A stretch of DNA of 14,252 bases. It comes from an uncultured Lachnospiraceae bacterium. GTDB taxonomy: Bacteria; Bacillota; Clostridia; Lachnospirales; Lachnospiraceae. This document shows, in pieces, positions 1,236-4,238 of the stretch; the stretch's first letter is position 1, and each line of letters starts with the position of its first letter. Made by a program: the position numbers and the translations under genes. The notes under the pieces are model-generated. The model did not search any database. It saw only the letters and a list, made by a program, of their open reading frames with translations, and was not told the origin of the DNA. The stretch lies in NCBI GenBank assembly GCA_947594085.1, contig CANQEB010000036.1:1-14252 (forward strand). Direction: 5' to 3'.

Positions 1236-2432
1236 ATGGGATATACGATTAAAAACGTGATCAGCAACAAATATGTCCCGCAGTGGGGCAATCAGAAGAA
1301 ATTCATTGCAATCCATTACCTCGGCGTGGTCGGACAGAACCATGAGTTGCAGGCGGATGGATGCGGCGCACATTTCTATATCTACTGGGACGGGACAATC
1401 TACCAGAGGTGCAGCCTTGACGCCATCGTCTGGGCGGTCGGCACGGCGGGATATTACACGCAAAAGCATCCTCAGGCGCGCAACGCTAACACGATCAGTA
1501 TCGAGATGTGCTGCAAGTGCGACGGAGATTCCACCAGTGCAGAGGATAAGCGGTGGTATTTCACGACCGAGACGCAGGAGGCTTGCGCGTGGCTGGTGAG
1601 AAAACTTATGAAGGAGCAGGGTATTCCAGCAGAAAACGTGCTGCGGCACTACGACATCGTGAACAAGACGTGCCCGGCGCCGTACGTGCATAACAACAGG
1701 TATAAGACGTCCTGGACCTGGGATGAGTTCAAGGCGAAGATCGGAGCCGGTCAGGACATCAAGGGCATCCGTATCGGCGACAGCACAGTCAATGAGATCT
1801 CCAAAGTGGTTTACAACGAGGCCGGCGTGATCCAGTCGTATGACGCTCTGGTGGCGGTCGCGCAGTGCATCAAGGATATGGTGGACAACGGCGGCTACGG
1901 CAAAGGCATCACGGATGTGATGGAACGTAACTTCTCGGCGTACGGACAGGCCACAACCACCGACGATGCGCGCCGGGCGGTGTATGAGGTGTTCGTAGAG
2001 GGCAAGAGGCGGTATCAGGACGCCGTGATCCTGCAGTTCCGGAGCTTCACGAAGTACAGCGACGGCAAGGGCAACATGGACCCTGCCAAGTGCGCGAGCT
2101 TGCTGGAGAAGTATGAGTATCTCGGCAAGGACGCCAGGGATAACAGGTGGGGGCATCTGTATTTCGGTCATAAAGTGGCCGCGGCGGCTCCGGCTCCGGA
2201 ACAAACGCCCACCAAGGGAACATACGTCGTGCAGGCCGGATCATTCACGGATTCCCGGAACGCGGACAAGCTGGCGGATCGGATCAAGGCGGCCGGATTT
2301 GACGCCATCATAAAGGGCGAGGCCGGTCAGTACAAGGTGCAGTGCGGCGTGTTTCAGGTTAAGGCCAATGCGGATACCCTAGTGGCAAAGCTGAAGACGG
2401 CTGGGTTTGAGGCGATTATCAAGACAGTATAA
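1236..2432 (+). CDS. Phage endolysin: N-acetylmuramoyl-L-alanine amidase with SPOR domain
   Basis: Peptidoglycan-cleaving lysin of 398 residues. Residues about 20-165 form an Amidase_2/PGRP-type zinc amidase. Predicted zinc ligands are H27 (in AIHYLG), H138 (in RHYD) and C146 (in TCPAPY), and the GAHFYIYWDGTIYQ segment is typical of the fold. Residues about 183-312 resemble the SleB-type cell-wall hydrolase family (VVYNEAG with E195, YDALVAVAQCIKDMV, and a closing GHLYFGH), which would give a second catalytic unit; this assignment is tentative. After an Ala/Pro linker (314-326), residues 328-398 form a SPOR domain, with two related half-repeats ending AAGFDAIIK and TAGFEAIIK. The ribosome site AAGGAG (1224-1229) is six bases before the ATG. 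A hairpin at 1204-1221 abuts it and could affect translation. No signal peptide is seen, consistent with holin-dependent release. Confidence 0.93.
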   Translation: MGYTIKNVISNKYVPQWGNQKKFIAIHYLGVVGQNHELQADGCGAHFYIYWDGTIYQRCSLDAIVWAVGTAGYYTQKHPQARNANTISIEMCCKCDGDSTSAEDKRWYFTTETQEACAWLVRKLMKEQGIPAENVLRHYDIVNKTCPAPYVHNNRYKTSWTWDEFKAKIGAGQDIKGIRIGDSTVNEISKVVYNEAGVIQSYDALVAVAQCIKDMVDNGGYGKGITDVMERNFSAYGQATTTDDARRAVYEVFVEGKRRYQDAVILQFRSFTKYSDGKGNMDPAKCASLLEKYEYLGKDARDNRWGHLYFGHKVAAAAPAPEQTPTKGTYVVQAGSFTDSRNADKLADRIKAAGFDAIIKGEAGQYKVQCGVFQVKANADTLVAKLKTAGFEAIIKTV

Positions 2433-2475: not shown

Positions 2476-2685
2476 TTATACTCTGTTTCCATTTGCGTCA
2501 ATGCCATATGGCTCCGTGACATAGATATCCCGACCGTCGTACAGCACCTCGATCTCCACGCCACGACCGTTGCGGAAGGTGAGATATGTACCATCGCCAG
2601 GGACATCGTTGGTGGCGGTCAGAGTAAAGCCGATCAAGTGCTGGAAATCTGATGCTGTGTGCTTGGCTTTCAATTCTTGGTTCAT
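2476..2685 (-). CDS. Small prophage protein of unknown function (69 aa)
   Basis: I do not recognise the family. Starts MNQELKAKHT. A strong AAAGGAG on the minus strand lies about seven bases before the ATG, which supports a real gene. The middle has a beta-rich look (LIGFTLTATNDVPGDGTYLTF, then GVEIEVLYDGRDIYVTEPYG), with alternating hydrophobic and polar residues, so a small beta-barrel or SH3-like fold is possible. It converges on the endolysin gene and lies downstream of the 2731-2982 gene on the same strand, 45 bases apart. The two could share the repressor-controlled promoter near 3014-3042. Confidence 0.75.
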   Translation of the reverse strand: MNQELKAKHTASDFQHLIGFTLTATNDVPGDGTYLTFRNGRGVEIEVLYDGRDIYVTEPYGIDANGNRV

Positions 2686-2730
2686 GTCTTCTCCTTTCTG
2701 CCTTCGTGCCTCCGGGGCGGGTGTGCTTAA

Positions 2731-2982
2731 CTAAATGTTGTATTTAATCCATAATTTTGCAGACTTTTTAACCTCCTTGTAGCGCTTGACGAATTGTTTG
2801 TATTCACTGTAATCATCAACACTGCATAAAGCGTAATCATCAGTTATCTGCTCTAAATTGTAACCATTGATTGCCATCACCTTTTCGATTTTTTCGTATA
2901 ATTTTTGCTCAGACCTATCGAAACTAATTTCTGCTATTCTATATTTATAGCCTGCATCCATTCCTTTATAATTCACCCTCAT
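2731..2982 (-). CDS. Small prophage protein of unknown function (83 aa), repressor-linked
   Basis: Family not recognised. The protein is charged and rich in Tyr and Lys, and probably largely helical (SEQKLYEKIEKVMAINGYNL, then EYKQFVKRYKEVKKSAKLWI). There are no membrane segments or catalytic motifs that I can name. GGAGG precedes the ATG by about nine bases. Its promoter (TTGTAA, 17 bp, TATAAT) is divergent from the XRE regulator gene and has operator copy 1 between the two elements, so it is very probably a target of that regulator. The AT-rich composition differs from the neighbouring phage late genes, which suggests separate acquisition as an accessory (moron) gene. Confidence 0.8.
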   Translation of the reverse strand: MRVNYKGMDAGYKYRIAEISFDRSEQKLYEKIEKVMAINGYNLEQITDDYALCSVDDYSEYKQFVKRYKEVKKSAKLWIKYNI

Positions 2983-3013
2983 TTTGGCTGCCTCCGTTCC
3001 TTTTGATGATTAT

Positions 3014-3042
3014 ATTATACATTAAATATCGTGTATTTACAA
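3014..3042 (-). promoter_or_regulatory. Promoter of the 2731-2982 gene with operator copy 1
   Basis: On the minus strand, TTGTAA (3042-3037) and a perfect TATAAT (3019-3014) are 17 bp apart. Operator copy 1 (3019-3034, minus-strand reading ACACGATATTTAATGT) fills the spacer and shares the first T of the -10 element. Confidence 0.75.
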
Positions 3043-3073
3043 TTGACATATTACACGAAATATAGTGTATATC
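3043..3073 (+). promoter_or_regulatory. Upstream promoter toward the XRE gene with operator copy 2
   Basis: TTGACA at 3043-3048 is followed by TGTATA (3066-3071, 17 bp spacing) or TATATC (3068-3073, 19 bp spacing). Operator copy 2 occupies 3053-3068 within it. The -10 is weaker than in the second promoter at 3115, so this may be a minor start or a binding site only. Confidence 0.5.
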
Positions 3074-3096
3074 TTGATGAGATTTTTGTAAGAAAT

Positions 3097-3112
3097 ACAC
3101 GAAAAATAATGC
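3097..3112 (+). promoter_or_regulatory. Operator copy 3, upstream of the main XRE promoter
   Basis: ACACGAAAAATAATGC ends two bases before the -35 element at 3115. It lies outside the core promoter, 26 bp (start to start) from copy 4, and could support cooperative binding with it. Confidence 0.7.
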
Positions 3113-3114
3113 AA

Positions 3115-3143
3115 TTGACAAAACATGAAAATTAATGTAGAAT
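3115..3143 (+). promoter_or_regulatory. Main promoter of the XRE gene with operator copy 4 in the spacer
   Basis: TTGACA (3115-3120), 17-bp spacer and TAGAAT (3138-3143). Operator copy 4 (3123-3138) fills the spacer and shares its last T with the -10. This arrangement predicts negative autoregulation by blocking RNA polymerase. Confidence 0.85.
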
Positions 3144-3171
3144 CAAATAAAAACGGAAGGAGTGATAAGTT

Positions 3172-3387
3172 GTGCTTGTGTATAAAATAGATGTGTTGGC
3201 AGCATTGAAAGAAGCCGGATACACCACAACGAGGCTGAGAAAAGAAAAACTGTTGAATGAAAGCGCAATACAATACATTAGAGAGGGAAAACCAATCGGG
3301 GCGAAAGCACTGGATAACATTTGCAGGCTTCTTGATATGCAGCCAGGAAACGTGCTGAAGTATGTGGAAGATATACACGAAAAATAA
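3172..3387 (+). CDS. XRE-family (Cro/CI-type) small repressor, 71 aa
   Basis: DNA-binding regulator made of little more than one helix-turn-helix domain of the HTH_26 (PF13443) type: VYKIDVLAALKEAGYTTTRL, then NESAIQYIREGKPIGAKAL as the recognition region, and ICRLLDMQPGNVLKYVED closing the domain. The start is a GTG at 3172, about nine bases after GGAAGGAG (3155-3162); no ATG is available. The protein has no cleavage or dimerisation domain of the long CI type, so it would act more like Cro or a toxin-antitoxin-type autoregulator. Six matching operator copies surround it, one of which (3375-3390) overlaps its own last codons and stop. It probably controls itself, the divergent 2731-2982 gene and the 3481-3645 gene. 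Confidence 0.88.
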   Translation: MLVYKIDVLAALKEAGYTTTRLRKEKLLNESAIQYIREGKPIGAKALDNICRLLDMQPGNVLKYVEDIHEK

Positions 3388-3390
3388 TGT
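3375..3390 (+). promoter_or_regulatory. Operator copy 5, overlapping the XRE stop codon
   Basis: ACACGAAAAATAATGT covers the codons for the last residues (HEK) and the TAA stop, and ends nine bases before the next -35 element. It serves as coding sequence and, by its match to the other five copies, as a probable binding site. Confidence 0.7.
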
Positions 3391-3399
3391 AAAAAGTAG

Positions 3400-3428
3400 T
3401 TGACAATACATGAAATATAATGTATAAT
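3400..3428 (+). promoter_or_regulatory. Consensus promoter of the 54-aa gene with operator copy 6
   Basis: Perfect TTGACA (3400-3405), 17-bp spacer and perfect TATAAT (3423-3428). This is the strongest promoter visible in the window. Operator copy 6 (3408-3423) fills the spacer and shares the first T of the -10, so transcription should be strong but repressible. Confidence 0.9.
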
Positions 3429-3480
3429 GATATTATCAGATGAGGCAAGGCGCTGATAATACTAAAGAAAGGCGGTACAC

Positions 3481-3645
3481 ATGGAAGAGATGGGAATGAC
3501 GAACGAGCAGTACAAAGGAATGTTGCTTGACGAATTGGAAGACTGGCAGGAAGTTCTGGAGCTTGCCAAGGAAGCAGGAAATGAAAAGGTTATCCAGAAA
3601 GCTGAAAAGCAGATCGACAAGATCAACGAGAAGTTAAAGTTTTAA
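3481..3645 (+). CDS. 54-aa charged helical protein under the repressible promoter
   Basis: Frame from ATG 3481, preceded by AAAGGCGG a few bases upstream, and ending at TAA 3643-3645. The product MEEMGMTNEQYKGMLLDELE... is almost entirely helix-forming and charged (DELEDWQEVLELAKEAGNEK, then KAEKQIDKINEKLKF), probably a two-helix coiled coil. Family not recognised, though small proteins of this kind are frequent in clostridial phages. It sits between a perfect promoter with an operator and a strong terminator, so it forms its own short transcription unit. An anti-repressor, adaptor or small toxin-antitoxin partner are all possible; nothing in the sequence distinguishes them. Confidence 0.75.
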   Translation: MEEMGMTNEQYKGMLLDELEDWQEVLELAKEAGNEKVIQKAEKQIDKINEKLKF

Positions 3646-3653
3646 GGGAATCA

Positions 3654-3688
3654 GGGAGGGCGGGCTTGCCACCGCTCCCCGCTTTTTT
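3654..3688 (+). terminator. Rho-independent terminator after the 54-aa gene
   Basis: Arms 3654-3663 and 3672-3679 pair with a two-base bulge (GGGA/TCCC and GCGG/CCGC), followed two bases later by six Ts (3683-3688). It closes the accessory unit just before the prophage boundary. Confidence 0.8.
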
Positions 3689-3723
3689 ATAATAGCATAT
3701 ATTCCGGAAGTAGGCAAGAAGAA

Positions 3724-3747
3724 CGGCGGCAGAATAACCTGCCGCCG
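3724..3747. repeat. Perfect 9-bp inverted repeat at the prophage boundary
   Basis: CGGCGGCAG (3724-3732) and its exact complement (3739-3747) enclose a six-base loop. No T run follows on the plus strand; on the minus strand the following bases are T/C-rich (GTTCTTCTTG), so it could be a minus-strand terminator. It lies between the last phage gene and the truncated host gene. Confidence 0.7.
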
Positions 3748-3749
3748 GT

Positions 3750-3800
3750 ACCACAATCCCCTTCTATAGATGCAGGAATATATATAACACCGTGGAATTC
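3750..3800. other. Probable attachment-site junction (attR) of the prophage
   Basis: Homology-like coding sequence for a substrate-binding protein begins abruptly near 3786-3795. Its frame remains open back only to 3738, through residues that do not resemble the family. That is the pattern left when an integrase recombines inside a gene. The exact core cannot be set without the left end (attL) or an uninterrupted copy of the host gene. Confidence 0.5.
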
Positions 3801-4238
3801 GAGCCGGGTGCGACCACGCTGGAGCAGGAGGGCGTCGGCTATGTCGTGGCTTCCCTCGGCACGGATTCCGGCTATGTACCGTACACGGCGTACTGCGCAA
3901 AATCCGGCTATCTCAAGGAGCATCCGGAGGTGATCCAGGCATTCACAAACGCGCTTCAGAAGGGCATGGATTATGTGAATAGCCACACACCGGAGGAGAT
4001 CGCAGAGACGATCGCGCCGCAGTTCGCGGAGACAGATATCGACACGATCACGGCGATCGTGACGCGCTACTACGAGCAGGACACATGGAAAAAGGATCTG
4101 ATCTTCGAAAAGGAGAGCTTTGAACTTTTGCAGGATATCCTGGAGAGTGCGGGAGAGCTCGAGGCACGTGTGCCGTACGAGGATCTCGTGACGACAGAGT
4201 TTGCTGAGGCAGCCGCAGTCAAGACAGAGGAGGATTGA
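3786..4238 (+). pseudogene. 3' fragment of an ABC transporter substrate-binding protein gene (SsuA/TauA/NMT1-like)
   Basis: About 150 C-terminal residues of a periplasmic-binding-type lipoprotein for nitrate, sulfonate, taurine or pyrimidine-precursor uptake. Recognisable parts are EFEPGATTLEQEG, the segment GYVVASLGTDSGYVPYTAY, then HPEVIQAFTNALQKGMDYV and a helical tail that ends EFAEAAAVKTEED. These match the second lobe of the family. The first lobe, lipobox and signal peptide are missing, so about half or more of the usual 320-350 residues is gone. The frame could start at GTG 3792, but no ribosome site precedes it, so the fragment is probably not a functional gene. No ATPase or permease gene follows. 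The simplest reading is that the prophage is inserted in this gene and the 5' part lies beyond its other end. Substrate cannot be told from this fragment. Confidence 0.85.

What the first reader, a model, noticed from the sequence alone, without database searches (positions are those of the whole stretch)
3014..3428. Six matched operators form a compact repressor regulon at the prophage edge
A 16-bp near-palindrome (consensus ACAYGAAAWWTAATGT) occurs six times in about 405 bp around a 71-residue XRE gene. In three promoters (3014-3042 minus, 3115-3143 plus, 3400-3428 plus) the operator fills the 17-bp spacer in exactly the same register and shares the first T of the -10. This ties together three units: the repressor itself, the divergent 83-aa gene and the downstream 54-aa gene. 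Neither target resembles a protein I can name. The layout fits an autonomous accessory module (toxin-antitoxin-like, anti-repressor or host-modifying) carried beside the lysis cassette rather than the phage's own lysogeny switch.
Basis: partly seen in the sequence, partly recalled or inferred. Interest (0 to 1): 0.82.

Follow-up and report, generated by a model that had tools for sequence, protein, structure and literature searches.

The report
Self-repressed cargo cassette at prophage edge
A tiny DNA-binding protein at the edge of a gut-bacterium prophage most likely switches off its own promoter and those of two flanking accessory genes through six matched binding sites, and the same switch recurs in related mobile elements while the genes it controls keep being swapped.

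Summary
In detail: six 16-mers at 3019-3423 (0 of 200 shuffles reach the observed match count), none elsewhere in the 2.4 Mb draft at <=1 mismatch, three filling promoter spacers in one register. In 52 de-duplicated loci with >=60% identical XRE, 230 sites flank the gene, 82 in that register; density is about 220 times background. Flanking genes are exchanged: the closest relative (XRE 97% identical, same host gene) has an unrelated divergent gene and at most a distant relative downstream. A relative prophage has a separate CI-like repressor at its opposite end, near a serine integrase, so this is probably not the lysogeny switch. Best reading: an autorepressed cargo cassette working like anti-CRISPR/Aca or VanUG control. 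DNA binding, timing and cargo function are inferred; a toxin-antitoxin pair is not supported. New here: a sequence-variable hairpin at the downstream transcript's start, and operator position 5 following the recognition helix, though only one or two evolutionary changes underlie that. No description turned up in eight paper searches.

The parts
3172..3387 (+). xre: 71-aa HTH_26 (Cro/CI-type) protein, the presumed repressor
   Evidence: PF13443 E 1.8e-07; 742 matching protein clusters; AF2 model mean pLDDT 89.6
3019..3034 (-). operator O1, in the spacer of the divergent promoter
   Evidence: 1 mismatch; register recurs
3053..3068 (+). operator O2, 34 bp from O1
   Evidence: 1 mismatch; relative position recurs
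3097..3112 (+). operator O3, 44 bp from O2
   Evidence: 1 mismatch; relative position recurs
3123..3138 (+). operator O4, in the spacer of the xre promoter
   Evidence: 0 mismatches; register recurs
3375..3390 (+). operator O5, overlaps the xre stop codon
   Evidence: 0 mismatches; at +203 to +207 in many relatives
3408..3423 (+). operator O6, in the spacer of the downstream promoter
   Evidence: 0 mismatches; register recurs
3014..3042 (-). divergent promoter (predicted)
   Evidence: TTGTAA-17-TATAAT
3115..3143 (+). xre promoter (predicted)
   Evidence: TTGACA-17-TAGAAT
3400..3428 (+). downstream promoter (predicted)
   Evidence: TTGACA-17-TATAAT
3431..3461 (+). hairpin at the predicted 5' end of the downstream transcript (9-bp stem)
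   Evidence: stem TATTATCAG/CTGATAATA; MFE -8.2 kcal/mol, z -1.91
3481..3645 (+). downstream cargo: 54-aa predicted helical hairpin
   Evidence: 464 matching protein clusters; AF2 pLDDT 93.2, two helices
3658..3677 (+). terminator-like hairpin after the 54-aa gene
   Evidence: 2 found, 1.0 expected
2731..2982 (-). divergent cargo gene 1: 83-aa protein, near-orphan
   Evidence: 2 database hits, one being itself; relative in the divergent arm of L056, weak one in L066
2476..2685 (-). divergent cargo gene 2: 69-aa protein, probably same transcript (inferred)
   Evidence: ORF with RBS on the same strand; no Pfam, NCBIfam or PADLOC match, PHROG none under E 0.05
1236..2432 (+). amidase of the lysis cassette (context)
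   Evidence: PF01510 4e-17, SPOR 4.2e-15
3780..3795 (.). right prophage end (attR region) inside an SsuA/NMT1-like binding-protein gene
   Evidence: homology to the gene of same-genus relatives starts at 3784-3795 in 9 of 11

Best explanation
The locus is an autorepressed accessory-gene cassette of a temperate phage. The 71-aa XRE protein, presumably a dimer, binds a 16-bp palindrome. Where the palindrome fills the -35/-10 spacer it keeps RNA polymerase off, so the protein shuts its own promoter, the divergent cargo promoter (83-aa gene, probably also the 69-aa gene) and the downstream cargo promoter (54-aa gene). The extra operators, often 33-34 bp apart, probably give cooperative binding. 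All three promoters are near consensus, so cargo would be made in a burst whenever the DNA is free of repressor (entry into a new cell, or prophage replication outrunning the repressor) and then fall silent. Mobile elements keep switch and operators and exchange the cargo. Shown: gene, operators, promoter register in sequence, recurrence in relatives, cargo exchange. Inferred: binding, repression, timing, benefit of the cargo.
For: Six sites, three in one promoter register. 52 de-duplicated loci: 230 sites, 82 with >=9/12 promoter match at the window's register; of the 12 other shifts nine give 0, and -2 gives 7, +3 gives 2, +5 gives 21 (one of the 12 letters at shift 0 and three at shift +5 are fixed by the motif itself). 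167 sites in 43.6 kb near xre against 8 in 464 kb elsewhere at <=1 mismatch; 43 of 52 loci have >=2 sites, 44 of 52 a register promoter (divergent 26, xre 26, downstream 29). Neighbouring sites 33-34 bp apart in 65 of 183 pairs. L030 keeps switch and both flanks of the prophage end but not the divergent gene. Half-site position 5 is G in 103 of 196 half-sites of the 19 NES-helix loci and in 0 of 207 of the 21 GEN-helix loci. Separate CI-like repressor in a relative prophage. Precedents, read as passages: Aca inverted repeats inside core promoters (PMC9410906); VanUG repressing its own and a second promoter through inverted repeats (PMC4405338).
Against: No binding, expression or timing data. 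The helix/operator correlation rests on one or two changes on the tree, so ancestry alone could give it. 8 of 52 loci show no register promoter and only 9 show all three; below 60% identity the window's own motif is mostly missing. No cargo protein was recognised as an anti-defence protein, and no library of such proteins was on hand. No terminator is predicted between xre and the 54-aa gene, so read-through is possible. The prophage's other end is missing from the draft genome.
Confidence: 0.6

Rival explanations
1. Lysogeny switch: the XRE protein is the phage's main repressor, and the divergent or downstream gene plays the Cro or antirepressor part.
For: An autorepressing XRE with divergent promoters and several operators is the plan of a CI/Cro switch; in G060 the module sits where a minus-strand gene cluster meets a plus-strand one.
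Against: The Cuneatibacter prophage (G061 = G064:C2 40955-75832) has a CI-like protein (PHROG transcriptional repressor 1.4e-08, regulator 1.4e-12) at the opposite end; a serine integrase with a Recombinase match lies 1.3 kb beyond the end that IMG/VR drew. Divergent and downstream genes are exchanged between relatives. The only Pfam match is an HTH domain. In some genomes the nearest large upstream gene is a housekeeping gene. One relative only was checked this closely.
Confidence: 0.14
2. Toxin-antitoxin-like module: XRE is the antitoxin and regulator, the 54-aa or 83-aa protein the toxin.
For: Small XRE antitoxins exist (general knowledge); among 17 hand-picked downstream proteins of relatives ParE matches 3 and DUF4160 matches 3.
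Against: The 54-aa gene has a predicted promoter of its own, and in 10 of 11 viral loci its family has no XRE of this kind in the DNA fetched. No PADLOC match. Where TA-like genes occur they look, by inspection, like two-gene pairs carried as cargo.
Confidence: 0.07
3. The downstream small helical protein is an antirepressor or co-regulator of XRE, making a two-protein switch with leader-hairpin control.
For: Small proteins of one single-linkage blastp cluster lie in the downstream arm of 15 of 102 loci, near-copies included; AF2 gives a confident helical hairpin for the window's; 24 of 29 small downstream proteins have a second Met at residues 3-7; 13 of 29 downstream leaders start with a stem of >=7 Watson-Crick pairs, expected 1.2%.
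Against: The slot also holds unrelated proteins, including TA-like genes and a Uma2 nuclease; the family occurs without XRE; PHROG matches for 25 of the small proteins are single and weak (E 0.003-0.005).
Confidence: 0.12

Closest known systems
Anti-CRISPR/Aca operons (Aca1-10, AcrIIA1)
   Same: Small HTH autorepressor, inverted repeat inside the core promoter, variable small accessory genes on mobile elements (PMC9410906, passages)
   Different: No known acr identified here; xre has its own predicted promoter between two cargo units instead of following acr in one operon; six operators over three promoters here; no Aca among PDB sequence hits
VanUG of the enterococcal vanG locus (Xre family, PDB 3tyr)
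   Different: 15-16% identity; controls resistance genes together with a two-component system; not a phage cassette
CylR2 of Enterococcus faecalis (PDB 1utx)
CI/Cro, ImmR/ImmA and C/Ner switches of prophages in Clostridium clostridioforme LM41
   Same: Divergent promoters under an HTH repressor (PMC11318856, passages)
   Different: Those passages put them in the lysogeny module; this module is at the lysis end, and one relative prophage has both
Archaeal-virus anti-defence regulons found by a shared regulatory sequence (Aca8)
   Same: One conserved regulatory sequence over diverse small genes (PMC11065993, passages)
   Different: Archaeal promoters and a wHTH protein; an anti-defence role is argued there, unknown here

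Membership tests
XRE / HTH_26 DNA-binding proteins | HTH_26 profile match above the curated cut-off | tested here: met
   31.7 bits, cut-off 22
XRE / HTH_26 DNA-binding proteins | Binds DNA | not testable with these tools
   needs gel shift or footprint
Anti-CRISPR-associated (Aca) regulators | Inverted repeat inside the core promoter of its own unit | tested here: met
   O4 in the xre promoter spacer; same register at the xre promoter in 26 of 52 loci
Anti-CRISPR-associated (Aca) regulators | Adjacent to a known acr gene | tested here: inconclusive
   No family above cut-off for the window's cargo genes in Pfam or NCBIfam, none in PADLOC; PHROG matches weak; no acr library on hand
Anti-CRISPR-associated (Aca) regulators | Sequence or fold kinship with Aca1-10 | tested here: inconclusive
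   No Aca named among PDB sequence hits or the fold rows shown; Aca models not on hand
Type II toxin-antitoxin | Toxin and antitoxin gene as one co-transcribed pair | tested here: inconclusive
   54-aa and 83-aa genes have predicted promoters of their own, 54-aa family mostly without XRE in viral loci; read-through from xre not excluded
Type II toxin-antitoxin | Recognised toxin family | tested here: inconclusive
   no match above cut-off for either small protein
Phage lysogeny repressor (CI type) | Only or main repressor of the prophage | tested here: inconclusive
   One relative prophage has another CI-like repressor; the window's own prophage is incomplete
Phage lysogeny repressor (CI type) | Confers immunity | not testable with these tools
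   needs deletion or immunity assay

The most novel reading that the evidence does not exclude
These cassettes are a large, undescribed class of early-burst plug-in modules of gut Clostridia mobile elements: a conserved XRE switch with operators in a fixed promoter register and a 5' mRNA hairpin drives constantly exchanged small genes that disarm host or rival defences. The switch could then be used as bait to find new counter-defence proteins.
Probability: 0.27. Interest if true: 0.78.

Novelty: new variant of a known kind. Interest (0 to 1): 0.52.

Why it matters
If right, one short operator pattern plus one small regulator marks a cargo slot in prophages and other elements of Lachnospiraceae (26 of 397 sampled genomes of the window's family, its own included, match the regulator at E <= 1e-15). 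Few of the cargo genes could be named. The switch would let such genes be found systematically, as Aca proteins did for anti-CRISPRs.

Tried and rejected
Rfam: no family reaches its cut-off in window 2600-3850, best chance match E 0.21; at gathering scores no family covers the leader hairpin in 11 relatives. PDB sequence search with XRE gave only WD-repeat and other beta-propeller proteins, judged spurious. Phage records: one weak match in a record without annotation. attL: the N-terminal half of the disrupted gene was sought in the draft genome with DNA of a relative; one partial match on another contig, nothing at the junction. Direct repeats of >=12 bp at the ends of the Cuneatibacter prophage: none in the stretches compared. 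Phylogenetic test of helix/operator covariation: one or two independent changes, so no significance. 83-aa family in 397 genomes: only the window. L194, first taken for an 83-aa relative (its match was residues 1-51 at 47%), shares clearly only about the first 25 residues and then stops. Covariance model and formal pair counting of the leader hairpin were not done, because MAFFT did not line up the stems. Foldseek gave no PDB match with E <= 0.001 for XRE; no Aca appears in the rows shown.

Rows dropped: 124 loci with XRE (123 fetched plus the window); register, density and spacing counts use the 57 with >=60% identity less 5 near-copies (L024, L025, L040, L044, L119) = 52. The 67 below 60% were scanned but not counted there. 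The helix tally compares 19 NES loci (one, L038, without a countable site) with 21 GEN loci; the other 12 of 52 have other residues. Divergent-gene Pfam scan: 25 of the 29 listed, plus the window (L033, L060, L062, L118 left out). The 344 flanking ORFs are mechanical ORFs with an RBS-like motif from 102 loci, near-copies included, so some are not genes. The 29 small downstream proteins include 2 near-copies. One search kept the best 80 of 318 relatives; protein lists 12 and 22 show 120 of 742 and 120 of 464.

Papers: no description of this module in searches. Four papers were seen as passages only (PMC11318856, PMC4405338, PMC11065993, PMC9410906); the rest as search listings.

Full report
Observation. 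The full count of 11 matches at up to 3 mismatches was not reached in any of 200 shuffles (maximum 3). In the draft genome (319 contigs, 71% complete) every site with at most 1 mismatch is one of these six. The promoter scan lists 3400-3428 (12/12), 3115-3143 (11/12) and 3042-3014 minus (10/12) among its 13 hits, 3.6 being expected. In each of the three the operator begins 2 nt after the -35 box and its last T is the first T of the -10.

Place. The contig holds the right end of a prophage: holin 552-1031 and amidase 1236-2432, then the module, then host DNA. Homology to an SsuA/NMT1-like binding-protein gene of same-genus relatives begins at 3784-3795 in 9 of 11, and at 3748 and 3766 in the other two; 8 of those 9 lie in an open frame of 339 aa or more (one with a stop codon inside), the two exceptions in short frames. 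So the junction lies near 3780-3795. The left end was not found in the draft.

Relatives. The XRE protein matches 742 protein clusters. In a sample of 60 relatives 9 genomes, the window's own included, have a match at E <= 1e-8, and 26 of 397 genomes of the family at E <= 1e-15: it is accessory. Of 124 loci read, the 57 with >=60% XRE identity were cut to 52 by removing near-copies. They hold 230 sites within 330 bp of xre at <=2 mismatches to a looser palindrome; 82 score >=9/12 as a promoter in exactly the window's register. Of the 12 other shifts nine give 0, -2 gives 7, +3 gives 2 and +5 gives 21. One of the 12 scored letters at shift 0, and the ACA of the -35 box at shift +5, are supplied by the motif itself. 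At <=1 mismatch there are 167 sites in 43.6 kb near xre against 8 in 464 kb elsewhere. Register promoters occur at the divergent position in 26, the xre position in 26 and the downstream position in 29 loci; 9 have all three, 8 none. Neighbouring sites are 33-34 bp apart in 65, 26-27 in 20, 37-38 in 19 and 44 in 9 of 183 pairs. Of the 67 loci below 60%, 30 (near-copies included) still have two or more sites to the looser pattern, but the window's own motif is mostly absent and other palindromes appear in some.

Specificity. Where the recognition helix begins NES, half-site position 5 is G in 103 of 196 half-sites (19 loci); where it begins GEN it is never G (0 of 207, 21 loci). That fits one protein reading all sites of its locus. 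But on a tree built without these residues the helix type changes only once or twice, so this agrees with direct reading and does not prove it. Which residues form the recognition helix is read from the model (helix 30-38) and general knowledge of the fold.

Cargo. L030 (XRE 97% identical) lies in the same host gene and shares the amidase and the prophage end, and 2979-3449 is 90% identical. Yet its divergent slot holds a 151-aa gene and, by its N-terminal motif, a serine recombinase, and its downstream slot a 52-aa protein. Neither the 83-aa nor the 54-aa protein finds a match in L030 at E <= 0.01; the 52-aa protein is 26% identical to the 54-aa one and joins its cluster by single linkage, so it may be a distant relative. 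Over 102 loci with >=54% identity, 344 flanking ORFs fall into 237 clusters, 180 single; the ORFs are mechanical, so some are not genes. Pfam names few divergent genes (26 scanned at E <= 0.01: integrase 2, HIRAN 2, J-domain 2, Fic 1, three weaker). Among 17 hand-picked downstream proteins it names DUF4160 (3), ParE (3), Uma2, Fic, DUF2442 and Gp49 (1 each). For 25 small downstream proteins PHROG gives three single weak matches. The 83-aa protein has one database relative besides itself, plus one in the divergent arm of L056 (51%) and a weak one in L066 (22%); those two loci were found through XRE, so the association is biased. The 54-aa protein matches 464 clusters, folds as a helical hairpin in the AF2 model, and in 10 of 11 viral loci no XRE of this family lies in the DNA fetched (up to 2.5 kb on each side).

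Not the lysogeny switch, probably. In the Cuneatibacter prophage (G061, 40955-75832 of G064:C2) the XRE module, a 51-aa protein and an amidase lie at one end and a 159-aa CI-like repressor at the other. A serine integrase lies 1.3 kb further out, at 77088-78452 (Recombinase match at 77631-77879; ORF), outside the boundary drawn by IMG/VR. In Diplocloster the module again sits, by inspection, beside holin- and lysozyme-like genes and further mobile-element genes (holin similarity). Of 30 nearest upstream large ORFs scanned, 8 to 10 match cell-wall hydrolase families (Amidase_3 4, Amidase_2 4, Glucosaminidase 1, endolysin-like 1; one protein may match two), others housekeeping genes. Those 30 are the window's amidase plus 29 loci, of 44 with enough upstream DNA, in which such an ORF was picked.

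Leader. Thirteen of 29 downstream leaders begin with a stem of at least 7 Watson-Crick pairs, expected in 1.2% of shuffles; control leaders gave 2 of 27 (xre) and 2 of 26 (divergent). Stem sequences differ while pairing is kept. In the window the fold is modest (z -1.91); in L030 it is strong (z -4.78). No Rfam family fits. A 5'-terminal stabiliser is the plain reading (inference).

Mechanism and comparison. The architecture fits repression by occlusion with self-control. Aca proteins (PMC9410906, passages) and VanUG (PMC4405338, passages) work this way; VanUG and CylR2 are among the nearest solved folds, at scores that are common for the fold. It works like an Aca system; membership is not claimed, because no acr gene was identified. 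Burst on entry or induction followed by silence is inference from strong predicted promoters and autorepression.

Verdict. No description was found in the papers searched.

Noticed in passing
L043 4570-4636 (-), L059 5509-5574 (-), L022 4368-5405 (-): Pistol ribozymes near two of these modules and three Twister-P5 ribozymes in a phage contig that carries one.
   Followed up: no
L048 1606-4156: Apparently two such modules in tandem: two XRE-like genes, each followed by small genes, with J-domain-like genes in divergent slots.
   Followed up: no
L057 3987-5015: The module lies about 1 kb from a cas1 gene in Lachnoclostridium An118.
   Followed up: no
window 3792-4238: The prophage has split an SsuA/NMT1-like ABC-transporter binding-protein gene; L030 has its prophage in the same gene.
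   Followed up: partly
window 3481-3492 and downstream slots of relatives: 24 of 29 small downstream proteins have a second Met at residues 3-7 (MEEM, MEDM, MNDM and the like), so the true start codon is unsure.
   Followed up: partly
L194 1461-3178: Two diverged relatives of xre, one of them divergent from a short frame whose first 25 residues resemble the 83-aa protein; an operator-like palindrome lies between that frame's -35 and -10 boxes.
   Followed up: partly
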